Below the pieces are notes generated by a model. The model was not told where the DNA came from, ran no database searches, and saw only the letters and a program-made list of their open reading frames with translations. A stretch of 64,000 nt of DNA from Tetrahymena elliotti 4EA. Lineage: Eukaryota; Ciliophora; Oligohymenophorea; Hymenostomatida; Tetrahymenidae. Within the stretch, counting starts at the first letter, position 1. Each line of letters opens with the position of its first letter. A program made the position numbers and the translations under genes. The stretch covers positions 238,189-302,188 of the forward strand of contig JH720364.1 of NCBI GenBank assembly GCA_000231825.2, in the 5' to 3' direction. Below, one piece after another: positions 17,883 through 46,308 of this stretch.

Positions 17883-19083
17883 ATGCAATCTAATCCACAG
17901 ATAATTCATGATAACTCATTCTAAGTTGTAGTGAGATATTTACCTTTGCAATAAAATGATATAAATTTACCAGAAATACTAGAGATTGATTAGTAAAATA
18001 AAAAAATAACACTGATTGACCCAGATTAGCCTTTAGAAAAACAGAAAAAAATATTTAGTTTTGATAGAATTTATGGTTTATAGGAAACCTAATAGACAAT
18101 TTATGGAGAAAATGTTGAGCCTTTAGTACAGAGTGTACTATAAGGTTTCAATGGTACTCTTCTTGTTTATTGTGAATATTAAAGAACAAAAGACTATACT
18201 GTCCTAGGTGACTAGAGCAATGAAGAATAAATTGGAATCATCCCAAGAATTTGCTAACAGATTTTTTAACATGTTCAATCTCATTAACAAGTCGAATTTA
18301 TCATCAAGCTTTCTTCTTGTGAAATTTTAAATGAAAATATTTGTGATTTACTTCAAACAAAAAATAAAAATTTAAATTTAAGGGAAAACAAAAACTAATA
18401 AATATTTGTTGAAAACCTTTCTAGTGTAGTTGTTTCAACCGAAGAAGAGATTATAAAATAAATTTAATAAGCTAGATTTAACTCTTGTATCAGCTCAACA
18501 ACAATGAATAGCTCTTATGTAAAAGGTCACACAATTCATTAAATAAAGATTTAATAATATGATCAAACTGATCCAGAGAATTGTTTAAATGAAAGTATTT
18601 TAAATATTGTAATATTGGCTGGCGCAGAAAGAATAAAATATTATGGATGTACTGGAAAAAACTTAGCTGAAGTTATCTTAACTAACAAAAGTTTGCTAAC
18701 ATTAGAAAAAGTAACCACTGCTCTTTCTAAACCTCATACAAAACACATTCCATATAGAGAATCTTAACTTACTAGAATTCTATAAAATTCTTTAGGGGGA
18801 AACTGTAAAACGGTATTGCTAACAGTCATATGTAAATTTATACTATTTTATTAATTTATCTACTTTTATTAGTAATTTAATTAATTTAAAAGCTAAAGAG
18901 AGATACGATATTTCATTACAAGCTTTAAATTTTGCAAAAAGGGCAAAAAAAATCAACAATAAACCAAACTTAAATAAAATTAAAGATAAATCTGCTATTT
19001 AGTCATTTAGAGAAGAATACCAATCTATTACCTCAAGCAGAAGATCTTCAGTCTCTAATCTTTCAAATATTTAAGATCGGTGA
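17883..19083 (+). CDS. Kinesin-like head-only protein with degenerate nucleotide-binding motifs (pseudokinesin)
   Basis: Exons 17883-18831 and 18893-19083 (intron 18832-18892) encode 379 residues ending at TGA 19081. It aligns along the whole kinesin motor fold: VVVRYLPL at the start (normally VxVRxRPL), FSFDRIY, GFNGTLLVY, GIIPRI, LREN, HIPYRESQLTRILQNSLGG and ALNFAKRAKKI at the end. The three catalytic motifs are destroyed: the P-loop region near residue 96 reads CEYQRTKDYT instead of [10 protein letters not shown], switch I reads MNSSYVKGH instead of NxxSSRSH, and switch II reads ILAGAE instead of DLAGSE. There is no coiled coil or tail; the protein stops after a short Ser/Arg-rich end. 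The frame is clean, so it is a selected pseudoenzyme rather than a pseudogene. It may bind microtubules or a kinesin partner without ATPase activity (inference). Confidence 0.85.
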
Positions 19084-25502: not shown

Positions 25503-28232
25503 ATGAGTGGAGTAAAAATTTAAAAACATTTACCTTGCCATGATTATCATATGGGTTATTGCTCATTGAGTAAAGCTTAATGTCCTTATAGCCATTAAGG
25601 GAGTTCATGGGGAATTTGCCCTAACAAAATCCACTGTCCTACTCCTCATAAGTTTGTTGATTGCCCTCTTTTTCTTAAAAATTGCTGTCCTAAAGGTGAT
25701 GATTGCTCATATAGGCATAAAGCAAAAGAAGAGAAAAATAAAAGCCAATGTTAGCAAGAAATAGAAAATAATGAAGAAAAGAAAGATGAAATAATCAAAT
25801 AAAATTGTGATCAAGCTTTGTAGAAATATAATCCCTTTGTCAAGGGGTTAACAATGGAGGATTTTAAATCATCTTTAGTAGAGCTAAGCTAAGACTTGAG
25901 AATTTTAAAGCCATTAATTTAAAAGGAAAGGGAATAAGCTAAAAAACAATATTCTTCATGCTCATTAGATTTATGCTTTGTAGTTGATATTAGTGGATCT
26001 ATGACTACTTGGAAGAGCAGAGTTGTATTATATGTAGGAAACACATTGAAATAAATTTATGAACAATTTCCAGCTATAGATTTAAGAATAGGTTTTTCTG
26101 GATATAGAGATATTTTTGATACCAATCAATATGTCACATTCGATTTTACAAGAAATATTGAAGATTTCTAGATGAAATTGAATAGTGTTTCATGTGGGGG
26201 TGGAGGAGGAGATTTGACGTAATTTAATTATTAATTTGATTATATTTTGTTTTAAAGCTATATTCAAAATCTCAAATAAGAATTTATATCAGATTTAATA
26301 AGCAGATTTTTTATGAGAATTTTTAATTTTTTTGTCATAAAATTTAGAGAAGATGTAACTGGTGGCTTAAATAATGCTTTATAATTAGATTGGTGTTCAG
26401 CTGCCAAATAATTGGTGTTTATTGCAGATTATCCATGCCATGGCTCTAAGTATCATAATAAAGTTGCAGATAATTATCCTAATGGATGTCCTAACGGTTT
26501 AAAATTAGAAGATCTAATGACCTAATTTAATTATAAAAGTATTCAATTTACAGTAGTAGAGATAAGTCCTCACACATAAATAATGTTCTAAATTATGAAA
26601 TAATACTATGGACCCAGTTTAGTTGTCAAAAGTTTGATAGAAAAAAATGCAGTAGGAGGAGATAACGCTTCATTTTAGAATATGGTTCATGAATCTGTTA
26701 AGTCTACAGTCACTGCTTCATTATCAAAAAGTGGTTTAAATAATGGTAACTTAATATAACCATAAGGCTAATTCAGCCAGGCAATCAGTGCAATTTTATA
26801 GAATAAAAGATTTAAGAAAGGCTCATCTTGGAGCTTTTCAAAGGACCAATCTTCAAAACTTCCACAAACTTTGGCTGAATTGTAAACAGAATAAGAAGAA
26901 TAAGTATTAGAAGAGGATGAATATGATTCAGATGATAGTGAATATGAAACTAAATTAGAGTAAACTGCATAAAAATGGGTACCATATGCTGTTAAATATA
27001 AATAGTCTAGAATTGAAAGACAAAGAGAGTAAAACTTAGAGAAGCTAAAGAAATCATTTCCTTCTCATTACTTTGATACTGTAGAATAGAACGAGGAAAG
27101 AAATAAGAAAAAAATAAAAGAAAAGACAATTAAAATACTTTACCACAAAGGAATTTTTAATTGGGACAGATTTGAAAATTCTAATGATTATTAAGCAGTT
27201 TGTTATTCTTTTGAATTAGTCAAAAATTATAAAGAAAATCAAGAAATTAATTGGAAAAATCTTGAAATTAAGACTTACTATCTGGGAACTAAAGTCAGAA
27301 TAAGTAATTTAGTTTTTTCAGAAGGTGCTATGAGATACGCTTATCATGCAAAAGATTTATATCTCAATCAAAGAATGGTGGCCAAGCAATACAAAAAACC
27401 TGAGAAATAAACAAAAATAACTGTTGAAGAAATGAAGAGAGATATTATATCTTAAATTGTTTGCAAGTACATTGTTAAAGAATTCAACAGTAAACTTCTC
27501 GAAATAGAAAAAAGTGAAGCACTTATTTTACAGTTTATTGAATGCTACATTTATGAAACTACTTATCCTTACAATACTAATTCCCGCTACTATTTTGAAA
27601 AATTCATTGATGGTACCTATGAAAAATTTAATAATAATGCTGGTTATGTTTCTTAAACCGATAATCCTTACAGTCCCTTAGCTTAAGCACTTTCTCATTT
27701 TTCTTGGTAAATTAGTAGAGGCTACCTTGCAATAGTAGATTTGTAAGGTAATAATGAAGGTATATTAACTGATCCCTAAGTTCATTGTTTAGACTAAGAA
27801 AAATTTGGTGATGGAAATTTGGGTTATGAAGGTATCTTGAGATTCTTTTCAACCCATGAATGTAATGACTACTGTAGAAAGTTATAATTGATCCATCCTT
27901 TTGAATAGAGCTAAATACCATTGAATAATTCTTTCTTCTTAGATTACAAAAATTCTGATTCAAAAAATTTAACTGAGGATGCAGAATCTATGATGAGATA
28001 AATGTGTGATATTTGCTAAATAGCAACCTCTTTTAGTATAAAAGATATTGTTCAGTCTAAAATAAATAATAAAAGATTAGTCTGCAAACATTGCTTGGAA
28101 TAAATAAAACAGACAACATTACAAAAAAAATGTGTCCAATGCACAGGATAAGTAATATTTAGCTCTTATGAATGTATATAATTAAGAAGAGATGCTCCTG
28201 CCCTATGCTAAAAATGTCAATAAAATTAATGA
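25503..28232 (+). CDS. CCCH zinc finger / vWA / alpha-kinase protein, copy 1
   Basis: Two exons, 25503-26218 and 26348-28232, encode 866 residues. The first 85 residues carry Cys/His clusters of CCCH type (CPYSH, CPTPHK, and a C-C-C-H finger ending CSYRH). A von Willebrand factor A domain follows with the metal-binding MIDAS motif DISGSM near residue 163. Acidic Gln/Glu-rich sequence leads to an alpha-kinase (MHCK/EF2K-type) domain from about 545, with TDPQVHCLDQ, the loop GDGNLGYEG near 728 and the structural Zn-binding THECNDYC. The last 75 residues form a C-x2-C-rich domain (MCDIC, CKHCLE, KKCVQC, LCQKC). vWA plus alpha-kinase is the VwkA-type architecture known in Dictyostelium, where it acts in vacuole and myosin regulation; a protein Ser/Thr kinase role is expected here. 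The CCCH domain is an unusual addition. The start is fixed by alignment with copy 2. Confidence 0.92.
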
Positions 28233-29392: not shown

Positions 29393-32125
29393 ATGAGTAG
29401 TTTAAATATACAAAAACATTTACCATGTCATGATTATCACATGGACAAATGTCCTTTACCAAAGTCTAAATGCCCCTATAGTCATAATGGGTAGTCTTGG
29501 GGAATATGTCCTAACAAAAATTATTGCCCCACTCCTCATAAGTTTGTAGATTGTCCTCTTTACTTGAAAAATTAATGTCCTAAAAAAGATGATGAATGTT
29601 CTTTTAGACATAAGAAAGAAGGAGAAAATGAATAAGAAATATAAGATAAAGTTAAGCAAGTTAATTAGGATAGAGCTTCTTCAGATTAAATTCAATTAGA
29701 ATAAGGTCATAATGAAGTTTCTACTCATAAGAAGCCTATAATAAAAGGGATGACATTAGAAGATTTTAAATCTTCTTTAGTAGAATTAAATCAAGATTTA
29801 AAAATAATTATGCCAATTATTTAATCAGAGAAAGATTAATCCAAGAGATTTAACACCTCTTGTTCATTAGATTTATGTTTTATTGTTGATATAACTGGGT
29901 CTATGAGTCCATGGATGAATTAAGTTGTTCAATATGTAGGAAATACTTTAAATACAATCTATGAAGATTTTCCTGCTATTAATGTCCGAGTCTCCTTTTC
30001 AGGTTATAGAGATCATTGCGATCATATAAAATATGTTACTTATAATTTTACTAGGAATGTTAACTAATTCAAGGAATAAATTGCTTGCGTAAAATGCCTT
30101 GGTGGTGGTGATACTCCGTAATAAATATTTTTTTATTTTTTTATCAATTTCTTCTGAATATATTATACTCATCTTATTGATTAGCTAGCAATTGTATGGC
30201 TTTGTTTTATTTTAATAAAGTATTTATCGTTTTTTTATTATAAAAGAGAAGATGTGACTGGTGGTTTATTTAATGCTTTAAGTTTTGATTGGGGCTCTTC
30301 AGCTTAGCAAGTAGTTTTTATTGCAGACAGTCCTGCTCATGGTGTTAAGTATCATGATAATTTAGGAGATGATTATCCTAACGGTTGTCCTAATGGAAGA
30401 AAAATAGAAGATCTTATGTTTTAGTTTAGTCAAAGAAGGATAGATTTTACTGTAGTAGAGATTAGCAGCACTACAAGAAAAATGTTTAATATTATGTCTT
30501 AATCTTATGGATAAGGATTAGTTATTAAGAATTTACAATCAGGAACTGCAATTTAAGGAACAAAATCTTCCTTTTCAGAAGTTATGCATGAATAAATTAA
30601 ATCTACAGTAACTGCTTCTTTGTCAAAGAGTGGAATAGGCACTGGTCCTGCAGTTTAAGTCTCAGGTAAATCTGGAAAAGCTTTTAAAGCAATTATGGAA
30701 AGCAAAAAATTCAAAAAAAATTTCTCTTGGAGTAAGTCTAAGGAAAAATCTTCTAAAATGGGATAAACTATAATGCAGGAATAAATAGAATAATAATAGG
30801 TATTAGAAGAAGAAGAATATGATTCTGACGATAGTGATTATGATACTAAGTTAGAATAAACAGCTTAGAAGTAGAGAAAGTAGGCTATTTAAGAAAAATC
30901 TATTCGTATTCAAAAAGAAAGAGAAGAATAATTAGAAAAATTAAAATAAAGTTTCCCTTCTCATTATTTTGAAACAGTGGAAGAATACTAATAAAGAAAT
31001 AAAAAAAAATAAAAAGAAAAAATTCAGAAGGTGCTTTATATGACTGGAGATATTAACTGGAATAATTTTGAAAATTCTAATGATTATTAAGCAGTTTGCT
31101 ATTCTTTTGAATTAGTTAAAAATTACAAGGGAAATCAAGAAATCAATTGGAAGAATCTTGAAATTAAGACATACTATTTAGGAACTAAAGTCAGAATAAG
31201 CAATTTAGTATTTTCTGAAGGTGCTATGAGATATGCTTATCACGCAAAAGATTTATATCTCAATCAAAGAATGGTTGCCAAGCAATACAAAAAACCTGAA
31301 AAGAAAAATAAAATATCTATTGAAGAAATGAAGAGAGATATTATTTCTTAAATTGTTTGCAAGTATATTGTCAAAGAATTCAACAGTAAACTTGTTGAAA
31401 TTGAAAAAAGTGAAGCTCTTATCTTATAGTTTATTGATTGTTATATTTATGAAACATCATATCCATTCAATGCAAGTCCTCGTTATTATTTTGAAAAGTT
31501 TATTGATGGTACATATGAAAAATTTAATAATAATGCTGGTTATGTTTCTTAAACCGATAATATTTATAGTCCTTTAGCCTAAGCACTTTCTCATTTTTCT
31601 TGGTAAATTAGTAAAGGTTATCTTGCAATAGTAGATTTGCAAGGTAATAGTGAAGGTATTTTAACTGATCCTTAAGTACATTGTTTAGACTAAGAAAAGT
31701 TTGGTGATGGAAATTTAGGTTATGAAGGTATCTTGAGATTCTTTTCAACTCATGAATGTAATGACTACTGTAGGAAGTTATAATTGATCCATCCTTTTGA
31801 ATAGAGTCAAATCCCAGTTAATAATTCTTTCTTCTTAGATAGAGGATCAGATTAGAAAAATACAGAAGAAGAATCCCAAGCTTTGATGAGCCAATTATGT
31901 GATATCTGCTAAAGTGCTAGCTCTTTTAGTATAAAATAAATTTTAGAAGCCAAAAAGAATAATACAAGATTAATCTGCTCTAGCTGTGTTGAATAAATAA
32001 AAAAGACTACATTCGAAAAAAAATGTGTTCGTTGCCCAGAATTATTGTAGTTTAGCACATATGAATGCATACAATTAAGAAGAGATGCTCCTCCTTTATG
32101 TAATTCTTGCTAAACCAAGCAATGA
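29393..32125 (+). CDS. CCCH zinc finger / vWA / alpha-kinase protein, copy 2
   Basis: Exons 29393-30117 and 30247-32125 encode 867 residues collinear with copy 1. The CCCH region (KCPYSH, CPTPHK, C-C-C-H ending CSFRH) is at residues 8-85. The vWA MIDAS reads DITGSM near 165, with Thr in place of the first Ser. The alpha-kinase domain has TDPQVHCLDQ, GDGNLGYEG near 728 and THECNDYC. The C-terminal Cys-rich domain (LCDIC, CSSCVE, KKCVRC, LCNSC) is complete. The intron lies at the same codon phase as in copy 1 and is the same length (129 nt), though its sequence is unrelated by eye. Conservation is highest in the kinase domain, lower in the acidic linker, as expected for two active paralogues. 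Same proposed role as copy 1: a Ser/Thr protein kinase of the MHCK/VwkA class. Confidence 0.92.
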
Positions 32126-32618
32126 ATTAATTTCCTAAAAAAAAAAATTTTAATTTATTCCAAAAATATATTAAACCTTTAAAAATAAATTTGTAATTTA
32201 AAATTCCTAAATCTTAAATATAAAAATGTTTGCGTAAATTATTATTTCTAATAAATTTATAATCTATCTCTACAATTGTATCTTTATTTTAATGATACAT
32301 TTGTATAATATTTTATTTAAAAATATAAACCAACTATACCCCAGTGAAAAAAATCTAAAATGAAAAAAATAAATCAAAAGACCAAGTTTTTGTTTGCTTC
32401 TGTTGGGGTGACTTAAAAATTCGAGTTTGTATTGTTCTCTCTATTGTAGTAAGGATGAAGCAGAAAAAAATTTATAATAAATAATATTAAAGAATAAATA
32501 ATAAGGAAAAGAAAAGGAAAGAAGAGAGAAAGAGTTTGACTTGTTAGAAAGTTGATTAGAAAGCAAAAGTATTTAAAAGTAAATAGAACTTAAATAAATT
32601 AGAGTTTTTACATAAAAG
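32126..32618. other. Spacer upstream of the AMMECR1 gene
   Basis: About 490 bases. Nucleotides 32330-32460 are less AT-rich than usual and may be 5' UTR. No gene was recognised. Confidence 0.5.
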
Positions 32619-33206
32619 ATGGATCAACAGAATAACTAAATTTAAGCCACAAAGGAGCATTGCAGGTATTGCTTCGATGTTTTAAAAGCTGCTCTAACCA
32701 ATTAGCCTATTCCTCCATTTCCATCTCATTTAGCTAAGTATAAGTGCCCCCTTTTTGTTACATGGCATATTGATGGTGATGATTTGAGAGGATGCATAGG
32801 TACATTTTAGCATGAAAATATTGAAAAGATACTCCCTTAATATGCTATGATTAGTGCTTTTAAAGACTCTAGATTCAGCCCAATTACTTTAAGTGAATTA
32901 CCTCGTTTGAATGTTTCTGTGAGCCTTTTAGTTAATTTTTAGGAAAACAAGAAATCTTTTGATTGGGTTATCGGTAAACATGGTATTATAATTGATTTTT
33001 AGCACAACGGACATACAGGAAATGCAACCTTTTTACCTGAAGTAGCATCCGATCAAACATGGGATTAGCGCACAACATTAGAACACCTTATTAAAAAAGC
33101 AGGATATAGAGGAAAAGATCTTGATATAGTTATACATAAAATCAAATTGACTACTTATGAATCTTCAAAATCTAGTTTAGATTACTCTGAATATATCAAT
33201 ATGTGA
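32619..33206 (+). CDS. AMMECR1 domain protein
   Basis: Single exon of 195 residues ending at TGA 33204. Family hallmarks are in order: PLFVTWH, the near-invariant LRGCIGTF near residues 49-56, [44 protein letters not shown], the AGYRGK segment and a Tyr-rich C-terminal SEYI. The length equals that of a lone AMMECR1 domain. AMMECR1 is conserved from archaea to humans (mutated in a human X-linked syndrome), and its molecular activity is not firmly known. A short Gln-rich leader precedes the domain. The start is the only ATG before the domain. Confidence 0.95.
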
Positions 33207-36977: not shown

Positions 36978-39900
36978 TCAAAAGAATAATCTTATTGATG
37001 GAACTCCTTTTAGTTAGCTAGTATATTCAGTTGTTTGGGTAAATGTTACATTAATATCCACAAATGTATCTTCAATTGACTTTATTTAATAAAAAAATAA
37101 ATAAATTTCACATGATTAAAAATTAATTTACTTTAAGCTCTAAAATTTTATTCAATTTTTTAGAGAGCAAATCACTTCTTTCTTGTTCACGGTTAGGAAG
37201 CAACATGAGTTATTCAATGTAAATAGGTTTATTTCCTTAGAAAACATCATGAGGATAAATCTTATAGGTCTTTAATAAATATTAGAATAACTTTTCTAAG
37301 GTATCATTTTCCTTGGTTACTTTAATTTCCCACCTGTCCCATACTGAGGTGCTTAAAATTTAGGTGAGTTTAAATTATTCAGCCTTTTGAGGTTCAGGCT
37401 ATACAAATAATGGGAGACTTAAATTCAAAAATGCGTTTTTGTAAAAATCGCTTTTAACTTCCTTCATAATTTTAATTGTTTCTATTATTTAAAGACCAGC
37501 TACTATTGAAGTTGTAGTAACTAAAGCAGGTATGATTTTTCCTGCTTTAAGTTTGACATCAATCCAGTCCATAGGTTCAAGAGTGTAATTGATTGCACGA
37601 CAATTAGCCATTGAGTGTAATAAATCTACATGATAGTTATCATCAACGTCTTTTTCAAATTCTTAGGGATTGATTTGAATTTTATTGATATTAAATTTAG
37701 AGCATGTTGTCTTAATTTCACTAATGAGTTGCTAAGGTGTTAGGTTATTTTAAGGTTATTCTATTTGCATTTCTTCTTTATTTTCTTATTTATTTTTTTC
37801 TTTATCTACATCTTGTTTCATTGATTTCAATTTATTTTCATCAATCTTGAATGAAGGGATCTTCTTTTTTAATATTAACTAAGCTAACTTAGCACGAGTG
37901 TTTGCATCCTTTAAATTTTAATCTATTTTTATTCCAAAGACTGTAGCTTATAAAGCAGCACATGATAATATGAAATTCAAATGATGATCATTTGAAGGAT
38001 TAAACTATTATGCATTAGGAGGACGTTTAGGAAGAGTCCAGAAGAAAGAACCATCTTTATTTTTATGATCGTGTGGATAAATATGTAAAAGAGAAAGTAT
38101 ATTATGGTTATAAAGCTTATAGAACTTATTTAATCCATATTACAAACAATCATCAAAATTTTTAGGATATTTTTTTAACATCTTTAATCCTTCACTCAAA
38201 GTTTTCTCTTCTAAAGTATTTAATTGGTTATTTTTAAATGCTTCTACAACCCTTTGTAAACTCTAAGGCTTTTATTGATACATTCTACCAAATTTGTCTC
38301 TGGCCCATTCCACACAATGAAGTGTTTACTCAGGGAACATCTTTAGTGTACAATGAGGAATATCGCCTTCTTCTTAGGGATCTTGTTGGCTTCCATAAGT
38401 TTCAGTTAAATGAGGAATAATAACCTAAAAATTTTATATTATCAATTATTTTAATAAAAAACATCCAAGAAAGTTAAAAAATTATTAAATAATTAAATAA
38501 ATTTAATATTAAGTTACTTGAACATGGCCTTTTGGTCCTAATGTACCTGAGTCTATTAATGCTCTTCTATTTTAAATACATCTTATGTCCATATATTTAC
38601 GTGCCTAGACATTATCAAGTGCATTTAAGATGATATTTTGTTTTTAGAAAAATGAATCATTGAATATATGTTCAGTTTATTCATAAACCTTGTCTAGTCT
38701 TGCAGTTATACTATTTTTTAAGTCTTTGTTCATGAAAATAGCTGCAGCTGCTGCCACACTTTATTTATAAATAAAATTTATTAAGTTATTCTTAGTTATA
38801 AAGAAGTGATTTACCTAGATTTTGGTTGACGAATATGCTTTTCTCTAAAGAGAAACTGTCTATTAAGATTGGAGTTTTCAATGATATCTGGATCTGTCAG
38901 AGTAATAGAGCCTTGTTTACCAAATCCAATCATAGAAAGATTTTTAATTAGTTCACATCCTATTGCACCAGCTCCTACAATGAATGTATTTGCTTAACTA
39001 ATTTTATCTAGAACTTCATCTCCCAAAATAACTCTCAAACCATCATATTTGTCATTCTTACTGTAAAGACCAAATTTACTAGCAATGCTTTGCAAATAGG
39101 AATCAATTTATATAGATTTTTAATCAAATTTTTAGATGTACTCAGTTATATTTACATCAGCAATCAACTCTTCACAGCTATAAATAAACAATTAATTTAT
39201 TGGTACCCATTTTTTAGTAATGCTTTTTACAATTTCTTATGCAATTATACCACCAACAATAGCACCTTATGAAGGAATGTAGCCTTAGCATGTAAATGCA
39301 AATTTAAGAATAGAATTTTAAACTGCCAATATTGCTTTTTCTTATTTGCTTTAAAGGATATCTTATAAACTTTATGAGCTTTAAATAGCCAATTAATAAA
39401 AGTTGGAAGCATCTTCTATATTCCAAGGAGCTGGAAGTCTATTATAAGTAGATATAAATTAATCTAAAATATTGAAACAAACATTCAAAGAATTTCTGCA
39501 AGCTGTTTCTTCCTCTGTAAAAATAGGAAGCATATTTTCTTCAAACAAAGGATTGATTAAATTCTCTTCAAGAGACTTAAATTTCAAAATCTATTGTTAT
39601 TTGATATGCTTAGCAATACCATTTCTATTATATGTTCCAAACTATTGAGTATCTCCAATATAAAATGAGTTCTTATATTTAAATTATTTTTATTCATATT
39701 TTTTTAATATTAAATCAAAATTTACATTATCATTAATTTTAACTTTGAATTGTTGTAAATTAAAGCTCTTTCCGTCATTTTAACTGATGACTTCTTTAAG
39801 TTCAATAACATCTCCATCTTATAATGAATGTTTAGTACCAGTCTAAAGTGTAACTAAACCTTTATTATCTTTTGAAATATTCTTTATCAAATATTCAGAT

Positions 39901-42900
39901 GCTTATTCACTATTTTTATTTTATTTAACAAATTATTATATTCCCAAAAAAGTTAGTTTTGTAATTTTTTGAAATTCTTTATTAATCATTTACACTGATA
40001 AATTAAAAAATAAGCTAAATTTAATTAAAATATTTTTCATTTTACTAACATTCTTTAAGCAATTTAAAAAAATTTTAATTTTATCATGCATTTTTTTTGT
40101 TTTCTGGAAAATAAATGGAAAAAAAGAATTGTTAAATAAAAAACTACCCATCTTTATCAATAACGGTGAATGATGAACCAAAATCACAAAATATTCTTGA
40201 ATAAACTGAGTAGTTTTGAGTAAAAATAAAACCAATATTTTTTCCTCTGCAGATGTTGTTGAGTTTAGTAGCTATTTTTAAATCTGAATTGCAGACAATT
40301 ACAACACTATAGTTTTAAATGAAAAACGGTGTTTGATTTTATATGTCATTATAATTTATTGAATAATCACAAGAAACATATTCATTTAGAGCTTATATTT
40401 TTTTAATTGAAACTTCTGCACGACTTTTACCAATATCTTCTTCACCCAAGAAGAATTAGCCTATTATATTTTGTAAAGTAACCTTTTCTTGATCAACAAT
40501 GCTGAATCTTTTTACGCCACTTAAAACAATATTTTTAGCAATTTCAACACCAACATGATTTAAGCCTACCAAGAGCACACTAGCATTAGCTTGCTTTTTG
40601 ACAGCATCTATTCCCAATGCTCCAATATAACGAGACCATCTATTAGTAACTTCTGAATCCTCAACATTGATTTCTTTGTTTTGAGTTTTTTTAACCTAAA
40701 TTTTAAAATACTACAATAAACAAAATTTAATTATTTAAAATATTTACATCATCATATGAAATATTCACATTGTTTACATCAACAACTTTTCCTTCATCAA
40801 GAATTTTATCTTAATTTTATACTTTAGGTTTAAATGATTCTTATGATTCAAATAAAATAGAGGGTTTTTCATGATAGATTTCAACAATCTTCTTCTTCTT
40901 TTAGCTGAACTTAATATTATGAGAAACACTTAACTTTAGTTTCTCAAAGCATTTATTTAAATTTTGAATTTCTTTTAACAAAACCTTTTTATAATTAGCT
41001 CCACTCAACTCAGAGCAAAAAGTGCTGTTATGAGAATTAACTAATCCTGTATAATCAGCTGGTAAATCAGCTTAACTAACCCACTTTTCACACTCCTTCA
41101 ATATCATATCTTTTTTCAAGAAGAAGCTCATCATAATGACTTCTTAAAATTCTGGAAGAGGATTGTTAATTTACTCAATCATTGCATATCTGATGTTACC
41201 TATCTTAACTATATTTTAATACCCTCTATTCAATTTCTCTCCTTCAGGTGTACCTGCCTATCCCTCATAACCGGGCTCATTAAAATAAACATATTCACTC
41301 ATAACTATTGCCTAGATAGATACTAATAGCTGCAATATTCTATATAATATTTTAATTTGTATGTTAATATAAATTAAAGATTATCATAGTTTTATTTTTT
41401 ATTTTTTAATTCAATTGAAAAATATTCAAAATATGAAGCAGGAGGAGGGGTTAGCTAACAAACTAGTGAGTTATTTTTTATGGCCAAAACAAACTTTTTA
41501 AAATGATGTCAAATTAACTTCATTTTATATTAAGTTATCAATGAGATTATATGATAAAATTGTTTGGATGCCATTTGATAAAAATTTAACTTTCAAATAA
41601 ATGTTGATGAAACAAACCCATTGAAATATAAATAATCATCATTATCATTTATTTTGTTGAGATATGTTTGTATGAAAATATTTTACTGATGATTAATCAA
41701 TAAATAAAGAAAAGTTTACGTTGAGATATTTGGATTCCAATTTTCATTTGAAGAGCCTCTCCATGTTCCTAACAAACTGAGACAAACTTTACCACAATGA
41801 TATAAATTAGGGTTGAACCTAATTTTTGCTGAGCCTGTATTTTTGAACAAAATCGTAAAAAAGATGATTTTAAAATTTAAATTACTTACCTGTTGTGGCT
41901 AGGTTAACTTTTGGAGAGTTTTGAGGGTATGAGTCATCAAAGAACATATCAAAGACAAACGCTCCATGCGCGTATGGAGTATCTTCTGCACCAAATATAA
42001 GACTTTTCATAACATCCATTCTTGAGGCATCATATCTAACAAATATAGAGCTTTAAGGAATCATTGGAAGTGAATGGGCCAAATCTGCTATTTCTTTGAT
42101 AAGTCTTTACATTTTTAGAGGAGAAGGATTACCTGATTAGAAGTAATTAGAATAGTGATGTTTTAAAATGACTCCAACAGAAGAGCTCACACATAAAGGT
42201 TTTAAAAGAACATTAAAGAATTATTCAGTATGCATCTAGCCAACTTCAATTTAATTCATAGCTTATTAATTTGAGTTATCTTCAACTTCCTTTATAGAAA
42301 GGTATTCGTTATCTTTTAAAGCTTTTTCCATGATTTCAAATGTCTTTAAATACAATTAGATCATCTATTTTTATTCTTCCACTTCCTTTCTTTTAGCCTC
42401 TTTTTAAGTTGGAGTTAACTTTAAGGCATCTAACAGTTATTCATTTTATTCTGTATTCAAAATATTTTTTTCATAAAAGTCTGCTTGATCTCTTAAAGAA
42501 GAGAGAAGGGAGTACAAACATTTTTAGTTCATAATTTCTTCTGCTTTGATTTTTTTATCTTTCTCATAATCTCCCTAGAGTTTTGCTAAATGATCTTCTG
42601 TCCATACAAAGAAATCCAAAAGTTCCTCTGTCTTAGCAATGTTTTGTAGCAAATTTAAAATTGGTTTAAAGAAAGAAGCACGCTTAGTTGATTCTAGTAA
42701 ACTGTTTGTGTCAAAAATGTTAATTAGAATAGGATTTAGTGTAGATAATTTAATTTTATTATAGATATCGGTATTTATTTAAAAGCTGAAATCAAATTCA
42801 AAGAAATGCTGAACGCATGCTGATAACTATTTTAGAATTTTTGAAACAAATTCAGACCCAACATAATTTTTAATTGTAGAAGTATCATTATATATCAAAT

Positions 42901-45900
42901 TATCTTATTTTTATTACAAACCTAACACAGAACTGCTAAATCCTTATTTTTGTTGTTTTGCAACATAAGAATCATTATGATTATAAGCGCTTTAGTTTTT
43001 AAGAGCATCCTCAGAAACAGCAGTGCTATATCCGCTGGAATAGTTTTTCATCCAAGAAGTATCTGAACTGCCATGACCATATCCTACACCTTTTTTAGAA
43101 AGGTTTGCACTTCCTCCGCTTCCATAATTAAGAGAACCGCTTTAATTATTCTAACTTGATGAGTCTTTTGGTTCTTCAGCTGCTTTAGATGTTTTGGTTT
43201 TTCTTTTATTTGGTAAATTTCCATTATAAATTTCAAATTTAGAAAGTATGTCTTGCAAAATGTTTTTTCTGAAGCATAAAAGTCTCAAATCAGTGCTCTA
43301 ATTTAAAAGGAAAAATATTTTTAAATGTAATTGAAATGAAATTTGAATTTACTTTATCATATTTAAAGATTCTTCTTAATGATTTGAAAAGCATATAAAC
43401 AGCTTGATGGAAATTAACTATACCCACTTTGTTATTTGAGAATTATTGAGTAAATAAAAGCTACAGGATAATTTTAAAGAAATCTTTTTAGATGATCAAA
43501 TGATTAGCAAATTATGGAAGTGTTAAGAATTTTTAAGCTTCAAAGAAGAAGATCATTAAGTTTTAAGAGTATTGCTTTTGTGCTTCTCTGTCCATTATTT
43601 GAAATATTTTTGTTATTCCTTGGCATTAATTCTAAAAGATTTCAATAATTTAATTCTTTCCGAGTTTATTAATTTCATAGAGCTTGCTGGATTCTTCTTC
43701 AAAAGGAAGTTTTAACAAGTTAGCTTACTATTTAATAATATTTCTTTAATTTATTTTAAATTGAAAATTAAATTAATACAGAGTATGGGACTATCAAATC
43801 TAATATTTTATTGCTACTGCTGTTGTCGTAAATATATTCTAATTATTTTATTGTTGATGAAAGTTACAATTCCTCATCGAGTTTACTACCTATTTTCTTT
43901 ACTACTTTCTATTTTTAAAAAAAATAAAAATATAAAAAAATGTTTATCAAGAGAAATAAAATTTTACTTTATTGTTTTAGTCTTGATGAATGAAATTATT
44001 AATAAAGCTCTGGATAGTTATGTAGTTAGGCACAATAGATATTTTCTCCAAACGGAAATATTTTAAATATTGAATATATATAGACTAAAGGTCTTCTTTT
44101 TAAGAGAACATTTGTAAGTAAGAATCTATCTTAGCATTTGCATTTTCTTGTTCTAAATGCCAGACTTCTGCACTTTCAAGGAAGATTTCTTCTGGATTAA
44201 GCTTAGAACTAGCAATAAATGCATCTTCTAATGTAACTTCTGAGAAAGGAAGATCAAATTTGCTCAAATCAATGTTACCAAAGTTGATGTAAATTGCAAT
44301 ATCTTCATCGAAAATAAAACTAATACCTGAATATTCTATTCTAATTAAATCCTTCATGTTTGGTGCAAAGGGTTCTTAATTGGATGTAATCCATTTTATT
44401 CCATTTTAAACTTTTTATTTTTTTCTTTCATTTGATTTCAAATGAAACATCCTAGTATCATCCATATAAAAGAAAAAGCTTTCTGAATTTGAAGTTGCTC
44501 TCAAATTTTTATTTGATTTATCAAACACGCTTGTCTACTGTAACTAATTTTAATCAATAAAATAATTGAATTTTTAAATAAAATTTTTTTGTTTGAAATA
44601 CATTTTTGAAACTCTCAATTTTGTTTTTAACATAAACACCAAACTTGATGGTGGCTCCTTGATAAGAGCAATTAAAGATGAATAAAGTCTGAGGTTCATT
44701 TTCGAGAAGAGGGAGGGTCTTTTCTATGCTAATTGTGGGATTATCTTTGTCTATTTGCATAATTTTACGCCACACTCCTTTTATGTCTTAATTCTATCCT
44801 GTTTTAATAAAAGAATTGTAGAAGTACTCTCTCTATCTTTCATCAAGTAAATCTGAAGGAACCCTGCAATCAGTTAGAATTTAATTAGCATTGGCACCTT
44901 TTTTAGAGATTTCTTTCAAGTATTTATTAAAGTCAACCACTGAGTTGATATCCCATGTTTTGTGTAAACAAAATGGTACATATTGAGTGTCATTTGTTGT
45001 CAAAATTGGAACAATAATTGAATAAATAAAACTAAATTTATTCTAATTTATCAAGAAAAGAAAATCATCAAGCAAATTCTAAACAAATCTTGGATCTATT
45101 TTCTTTTTTCCTGATATAATAATCTTGATCAAAATAACAATGCTTTATATTAATCTTGCATCATCTGACCACTGTTTCTTACCATCGCCAATAAAAGAAA
45201 CATCAGAAAATTTGACGGTGTCATACAATCTTTTATCTAAATCTTCATTGATGAGAATTTGAAGTATTTTAGCATCACTCTAACTTGCAAAAATAAGAAG
45301 CTAAATCATTTTCAAAACAAGCAATTGTTCATTTAACAAAAGAGCTTTATCTGCCGACTACAAGTAACTTTCTAATTATGAAGTGATTTACATAATATTC
45401 TAAGCTAGAACTATACTCATTCTTATTGGGTTTGAGAAATAAGTTAATATAAGAGTATCAAAAACTAAGTGTGTTGGTTCCATTCCCATGATATCAATTA
45501 ATTAAGTAGATATGGTATTCAAAATACCATCATCTTAGTTTATGTATGGCTCATGAGGATTCAAACAAAACCCAAATAACTTTTTCACATTATCAGTAAA
45601 TGTGAATGAAATATTTTCTGCATAGTCATCTATTTTCAACAATAAATTGAGAATAGATTTGGTAAATTGCTTGTCAAAATCTAACTTAAGTTAAACTGTT
45701 TTATCAACAAATTAATCTAAAGAGCTGTACTGATAAATATACAAGAATCTGAAAGTGAATTCAAAAAGCTCATTTAAATTATTAAGATTGGTTTTCTCAA
45801 ATACCCATTATCCACTAACACATAGGCTTTGTAACCTCTTCTTTATTTCATTTAAAAGTTTTCCTATCCTTAAAAATATCTGTTATATTTCATCTTTGTT

Positions 45901-46308
45901 CAAGAGCATTGGCTCAATCTATTGTAATAAAGCTCCAATAGGACCTTTGTGATCAGAAATCAAAAAATCTATTATATCCTCCTATTCTCTCACAATTATT
46001 TTGCTTTTTGTAATAGTTTTAGTCTACTGTTCTGAATACCCTATTGATATATTATAAAATTTAAAGTTAGAAACATCTTCTGGTTGCTCTTTAATTTTTT
46101 GTGATTAATCATGACTAAAAATAAGAATTAACAAAATTAACTTTCTTCTACCTTAAATAGTTGGTTTCTCTTCTTCCATCTAGTGATTATAATCCTCTTC
46201 ATTATTTTATGGTTCTGCTTCATATTCATAATCGTCTATGCCTTCATCATAGCCATAGCCATCATAATTATCCATGTCTTCGTTATAATCGTAATCACCT
46301 TCGGACAT
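36978..46308 (-). CDS. BIRC6/BRUCE-type ubiquitin-conjugating E2 fused to a ubiquitin-activating E1
   Basis: One open model from ATG 46308 to TGA 36978. Introns, all GT..AG: 44544-44601, 43728-43967, 43298-43352, 41835-41889, 41340-41719, 40711-40747 (or 40696-40747), 40015-40147, 38759-38814, 38425-38517 and 37080-37131. The result is 2723 (or 2718) residues with no TGA. Residues 1-40 are Asp/Glu/Tyr-rich; about 1250 residues of helical, unassigned sequence follow. A UBC domain spans about 1300-1480: [32 protein letters not shown] with catalytic Cys near 1373, then YFNEPGYEG, as in BIRC6. After a linker of about 120 residues comes a full E1: inactive adenylation half ([25 protein letters not shown]), active half ([48 protein letters not shown]), catalytic Cys near 2284 in PHCTLKMFP and a C-terminal ubiquitin-fold region. 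Both enzymes look catalytically intact. Confidence 0.88.

What the first reader, a model, noticed from the sequence alone, without database searches (positions are those of the whole stretch)
36978..46308. Single-polypeptide fusion of a BIRC6-type E2 and a complete E1
Seen in sequence: one continuous TGA-free spliced frame encodes a UBC domain with catalytic Cys and BIRC6 hallmarks ([24 protein letters not shown]) followed by a full E1 with both adenylation halves, the catalytic Cys motif and a C-terminal ubiquitin-fold region. The linker between them was checked base by base and is open. Known: BIRC6 is an E2/E3 hybrid that is charged specifically by the E1 enzyme UBA6, and bacterial Cap2-type proteins place an E2 N-terminal to an E1. 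Inference: this gene physically joins the two partners, a eukaryotic case of the same E2-E1 order, which could hand ubiquitin over in cis and act as a dedicated pathway. I know of no description of it.
Basis: partly seen in the sequence, partly recalled or inferred. Interest (0 to 1): 0.93.

Follow-up and report, generated by a model that had tools for sequence, protein, structure and literature searches.

The report
Ciliate ubiquitin E2-E1 fusion protein
A ciliate gene joins, in one protein, an enzyme that activates ubiquitin and an enzyme that passes ubiquitin on; the same join is found in several other ciliates, so ubiquitin may be handed over inside a single molecule.

Summary
On the minus strand, 46308..36978 encodes one table-6 protein of 2708 aa (13 exons, 12 GT-AG introns; the far N-terminus is uncertain). 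In order: scaffold, BIRC6-type UBC with its Cys (aa 1416), about 110 aa linker, complete E1 (two ThiF halves, SCCH, Cys 2269, UFD). It is 85.5% identical end to end to a Tetrahymena malaccensis protein. It is not a one-off: the genome has two more such genes, with no intron between UBC end and E1 (C4, C39), and 104 of 232 proteins listed in three searches have UBC then E1, linkers 79-115 aa, median 93. Hosts named in the listings are ciliates. UBC and a stretch of about 430 residues before it match BIRC6; no BIR domain was found. The E1 scores nearest UBA6, but trees do not settle its descent. Two EukProt entries show the reverse order. Ten full-text searches listed no paper seen to describe it; a 2011 Tetrahymena fusion survey's table lacks it. 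Handover in cis is inferred; one Paramecium paralogue has lost the UBC Cys.

The parts
36978..46308 (-). whole coding gene, 13 exons, 2708 aa (table 6), ATG 46308, TGA ending 36978
   Evidence: 85.5% identity end to end to T. malaccensis P0002
43638..46308 (-). N-terminal region aa 1-834 (acidic start; from aa 467 on a beta-rich part, then low-confidence helices in the orthologue's model); first ~100 aa uncertain
42293..43637 (-). aa 835-1264, armadillo-type region matching the C-terminal arm of BIRC6
41030..42127 (-). UBC domain aa 1320-1540, split by introns 41889-41835 and 41719-41340
41782..41784 (-). codon of the UBC catalytic cysteine (aa 1416, [11 protein letters not shown])
40642..41029 (-). 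linker aa 1541-1652 with its intron; in the relative P0003 its first part is predicted as a helical extension of UBC, then a disordered tether
40696..40747 (-). 52-bp intron inside the linker
   Evidence: GT-AG, GC 10%; same join in P0001 and P0002
36981..40641 (-). E1 aa 1653-2708 (IAD, FCCH, four-helix bundle, AAD, SCCH, UFD)
   Evidence: ThiF 2.4e-72, two stretches; SCCH 1.1e-63; E1_4HB, E1_FCCH over cut-off; E1_UFD 23.7 bits, just under its 25 (earlier model)
38350..38352 (-). codon of the E1 catalytic cysteine (aa 2269, PHCTLKMFP)
36981..37341 (-). UFD region aa 2606-2708, last strand in the final exon 37079-36978

Best explanation
One gene makes a self-supplying ubiquitin enzyme: a BIRC6-like scaffold plus E2, with a complete ubiquitin E1 fused behind the E2. 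Most likely steps: the E1 part adenylates ubiquitin and loads its own cysteine (domains and motif shown, activity inferred); the UBC, tied by a linker whose second part is predicted disordered, docks between UFD and SCCH of its own E1, or of a partner chain, and takes the ubiquitin onto Cys1416 (inferred from UBA6-BIRC6 structures); the armadillo-type scaffold brings substrates (inferred from BIRC6). Shown here: the fusion, its presence in several ciliates and the kept linker length. Inferred: catalysis, cis or intradimer transfer, ubiquitin as the modifier.
For: Proteins of two other Tetrahymena species agree at 10 of 11 junctions of my earlier model, and the eleventh (linker acceptor) was mended from them. 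Two paralogues without an intron between UBC end and E1: C4 exon 759701-758859 and C39 exon 296728-295181. 104 of 232 listed proteins in the same order, linker 79-115 aa, median 93 (many are nameless and some closely related). By string test, UBC Cys kept in 71 of 72 and E1 CTL[KR] in 69 of 72 fusions; the other three end early in E1. UBC nearest BIRC6, E1 nearest UBA6, a pair solved as a trapped UBA6-Ub-BIRC6 complex (PDB titles). UBA6 enriched with BIRC6 and UBC flexible in PMC10827748 (passages). In P0003's model linker residues 263-299 have pLDDT under 50. Reverse-order E1-UBC in P0071 and P0074.
Against: No biochemical or transcript data for this gene. Paramecium P0068 has lost the UBC Cys but keeps the E1 motif, so at least one paralogue cannot work in cis. 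The genome also has two UBA1-type genes that could charge the UBC. No model of the whole UBC-linker-E1 was made: no complete natural one is within the 1200-residue limit.
Confidence: 0.62

Rival explanations
1. The fusion is real, but the E1 part mainly serves other E2s, or the UBC is charged by UBA1; joining them gives equal amounts or shared location only.
For: P0068 keeps the E1 motif but lost the UBC Cys; two BIRC6-type UBC genes without E1 (C1:3651760-3650222, C6 from 816190) could be clients.
Against: Both cysteines kept in nearly all of 72 copies; linker length kept over 104 proteins; the partners are of the kinds that bind in animals (titles).
Confidence: 0.25
2. The E1 part activates a ubiquitin-like protein other than ubiquitin.
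For: UBA6 activates both ubiquitin and FAT10 (PMC9378703, passages); the fusion E1s are a clade of their own.
Against: Best PDB matches are the ubiquitin E1s UBA6 and UBA1, well above SUMO and NEDD8 E1 subunits.
Confidence: 0.1
3. Two neighbouring genes wrongly joined by splicing guess or assembly.
For: With no cost per gene the finder splits the locus, with a start at 41302; the 380-bp intron 41719-41340 is the longest of the gene.
Against: That split falls inside the UBC fold; C4 has UBC half, linker and E1 start in one exon; proteins of two other Tetrahymena species agree; fusions P0006, P0007, P0014 have transcriptome-style entry names. The 2011 survey's sign of a false fusion is an intron over 413 bp between the domains; here it is 52 bp.
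Confidence: 0.02

Closest known systems
BIRC6 (BRUCE, Apollon)
   Same: UBC type, and sequence and predicted fold of the armadillo region directly before the UBC
   Different: E1 fused at the C-terminus; no BIR domain found in the window protein, P0020 or P0005
UBA6
   Same: Complete canonical E1, best sequence match in PDB 609 bits against 536 for UBA1
   Different: Fused behind an E2; trees do not place it inside UBA6
UBA6-BIRC6 complex (PDB 9qgw, 9qim and others)
   Same: Same kinds of partner, some as a trapped ternary complex (titles only)
   Different: Separate chains there, one chain here
Cap2, the bacterial E1-E2 fusion of CBASS
   Different: ATG7-like E1 and phage defence; here a canonical two-ThiF E1 with SCCH and UFD
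Reverse-order E1-UBC proteins P0071 and P0074
   Same: E1 plus UBC in one chain; the UBC of P0071 is nearest BIRC6
   Different: E1 first, a long stretch between; E1s a separate clade

Membership tests
BIRC6 | BIRC6-type UBC | tested here: met
   236 bits to BIRC6 against 115 for UBE2O
BIRC6 | armadillo arm before the UBC | tested here: met
BIRC6 | BIR domain | tested here: not met
   no PF00653 in the window protein, P0020 or P0005, nor among the Pfam lists of the 72 fusions; so it is called BIRC6-like, not BIRC6
UBA6 | canonical single-chain ubiquitin E1 architecture | tested here: met
UBA6 | one clade with UBA6 apart from UBA1 | tested here: inconclusive
   unrooted: fusions a clade 100/100, UBA6 with UBA1 against fusions and reverse-order E1s 92/93; outgroup branches 4 to 4.9 long
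UBA6 | activation of ubiquitin and FAT10 | not testable with these tools
   needs enzyme assay
Cap2 (CBASS E1-E2) | noncanonical, ATG7-like E1 | tested here: not met
   two ThiF stretches, SCCH and UFD; nearest UBA6 and UBA1

The most novel reading that the evidence does not exclude
Ciliates carry a complete ubiquitin cascade in one chain: an E1 that charges its own E2, mounted on a BIRC6-like scaffold that selects substrates, up to about 6,400 aa in the C4 paralogue. The same two partners were fused a second time, in reverse order, in other eukaryotes. The UBA6-BIRC6 pairing would then be far older than animals.
Probability: 0.4. Interest if true: 0.93.

Novelty: new variant of a known kind. 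Interest (0 to 1): 0.8.

Why it matters
E1 to E2 transfer is normally between separate proteins, with E2s sharing the E1. A natural fusion kept across ciliates gives a ready system for asking whether transfer in cis sets specificity, and for dating the UBA6-BIRC6 link. One review finds UBA6 only in vertebrates and sea urchins (PMC6539292, passage); [quoted passage not shown] UBA6-named E1s are also listed for Balamuthia, the sponge Dysidea and molluscs.

Tried and rejected
Intron 46151-46115 near the start: breaks the frame, dropped. First acceptor of the linker intron (40711) and reading through 39725-39672: replaced after comparison with orthologues. Rooting the E1 tree with Tetrahymena UBA2 and UBA3, from which six fast or partner rows were left out: outgroup branches far too long and the root fell among the fusions; not used as evidence. 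Diagnostic residues UBA6 against UBA1: only 2 sites, too few. UBC tree: rows P0087, P0100, P0106 (animal BIRC6), P0103, P0072 and P0082 were lost by my motif cut, so it says nothing on them. Linker alignment used only the 54 sequences that fitted my pattern. In C39 the finder's intron 296807-296729 seems to drop about 10 residues of the UBC. A cis-docking model of UBC-linker-E1: no complete natural protein under 1200 residues. Row P0076, which I labelled UBA1 in the tree, fell with UBA6. Two early papers that I recalled as the likeliest earlier descriptions are not held, so mention there is not excluded. The 2011 survey's 28 rejected candidates are given by accession only; this gene may be among them. 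Structure search of the relative's UBC-linker-IAD model showed only E1 chains in its top 50, UBA6 and UBA1 mixed.

Full report
Observation. The window is A+T-rich DNA read with code 6. On the minus strand the gene 46308..36978 has 13 exons and 12 GT-AG introns and gives 2708 aa with no internal TGA. My first model (2731 aa) was corrected after alignment with the T. utriculariae and T. malaccensis proteins found: the linker intron is 40747-40696 (52 bp) and 39725-39672 is an intron too. The final protein is 85.5% identical over 2713 columns to the 2707-aa T. malaccensis protein. The N-terminal 100 residues differ between species and are unsure. Pfam and PDB searches and the first protein search used the 2731-aa model.

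One gene or two. A small gene finder whose coding model was trained on other genes (its background used introns already called here) gave one gene in 4 of 5 settings; with no cost per gene it cut the locus in three. The genome G000 (90 Mb, 134 contigs; not named) holds ThiF and UBC hits side by side, same strand, same order, at C4 and C39 as well as here. In C4 a single 843-bp exon holds the second half of UBC, the linker and the start of E1; in C39 a 1548-bp exon runs from the UBC's C-terminal part into E1. No splicing guess is needed at those joins. A 2011 survey of fused genes in T. thermophila took introns over 413 bp between the domains as the sign of a false join (PMC3143110, section 5 read whole); here it is 52 bp.

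How widespread. The first protein search gave 263 hits, 120 listed; by BLAST with my UBC and E1, 72 of the 120 are UBC then E1, 2 are E1 then UBC, 40 UBC only, 6 E1 only. Over all 232 proteins listed in three searches, 106 match UBC and the active adenylation half, and 104 of them have the E1's first half behind the UBC, with linkers of 79-115 aa, median 93. The lists are capped and some entries are close kin. Names given by the sources for fusions are Tetrahymena, Ichthyophthirius, Paramecium (four species), Pseudocohnilembus and an MMETSP entry cut to 'Platy', which I read as Platyophrya. That P0006, P0007 and P0014 come from transcripts is read from their entry names (MMETSP, TRINITY, GILK), which is partly recall. 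The hosts of P0063 (COSAG06), P0071 and P0074 are unknown to me. Many hits are nameless metagenome proteins.

E1 descent. In a careful tree of 37 rows the fusion E1s, COSAG06 included, form one clade (100/100); UBA6 and UBA1 fall together against fusions plus reverse-order E1s (92/93), unrooted. Rooting with UBA2 and UBA3 failed on long branches. For five E1s tried (four fusions, one reverse-order), identity to three UBA6s is 35-44% and to four UBA1-type E1s 29-40%; UBA6 is highest in each, by a hair for the reverse-order one (36.7 against 36.3). With P0014's E1 as query, the single E1s that bear an E1-type name in the list are called UBA6 or unspecific. So 'UBA6-like by similarity' stands; 'UBA6 by descent' is open.

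Mechanism. UBA6-BIRC6 and dUBA1-dBIRC6 complexes, some trapped with ubiquitin, are in the PDB (titles). In mouse BIRC6 the UBC is flexible and UBA6 is enriched with the complex (PMC10827748, passages); UFD and SCCH form a canyon that takes the E2 (PMC9378703, passages). In a model of a P0003 piece (mean pLDDT 83.4) the UBC goes on as helices to about residue 254, then 263-299 lie under pLDDT 50, then E1 from about 310. A tether of about 50 residues could let the UBC reach its own UFD-SCCH canyon; this is inference. By string test the UBC Cys is kept in 71 of 72 and the E1 motif in 69 of 72 fusions, three ending early in E1. The exception, P0068 of Paramecium, has lost the UBC Cys and speaks against an obligatory cis reaction in that copy.

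Reverse order. P0071 and P0074 (36% identical over 51% of P0071) have E1 first and UBC last. The UBC of P0071 is nearest BIRC6 in the PDB (139.8 bits, UBE2O 94; P0074 not tested). Only these two were found. Their E1s are apart from the fusion clade. Joining the same pair twice would speak for a real functional link.

Known or not. Ten full-text searches were answered (one of them, held no paper): no title or abstract start listed describes a eukaryotic E2-E1 fusion; I looked inside seven papers. The 2011 survey judges 52 genes likely fusions, and its table has none that joins ubiquitin E1 and E2. [quoted passage not shown] Papers outside the open library could not be read.

Noticed in passing
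G000 C41:351143-372116 (L034, L015, L035): A divergent E1 (about 359517-354335, minus) lies among three E2 paralogues on the same strand; two of them (362944-359972, 372116-368912) run into a USP-like piece (label from recall). A private E1/E2/deubiquitinase cluster?
   Followed up: partly
G000 C1:3651760-3650222 (L032): Single-exon 512-aa protein with a CBM20 starch-binding domain and a BIRC6-type UBC, no E1.
   Followed up: partly
P0071, P0074: Reverse-order E1-UBC proteins of unknown hosts with further domains (WWE in P0074).
   Followed up: partly
P0068 (Paramecium tetraurelia): Fusion paralogue whose UBC has lost its catalytic cysteine.
   Followed up: no
G000 C42:674124-668523 and P0081: UBA1-like E1 followed by further sequence; P0081 of T. 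malaccensis lists TPR domains.
   Followed up: no
window 25503-28232 and 29393-33206 (+): Two predicted genes alike at their N-termini; the first has an alpha-kinase domain and a weak VWA match, the second was not scanned.
   Followed up: partly
window 48050-47199 and 50875-50003 (-): Pair of paralogous alveolin-like repeat proteins (label from recall).
   Followed up: no
window 16495-14052 (-) and 17883-19083 (+): Kinesin-like gene and a shorter kinesin-like gene beside it (label from recall).
   Followed up: no
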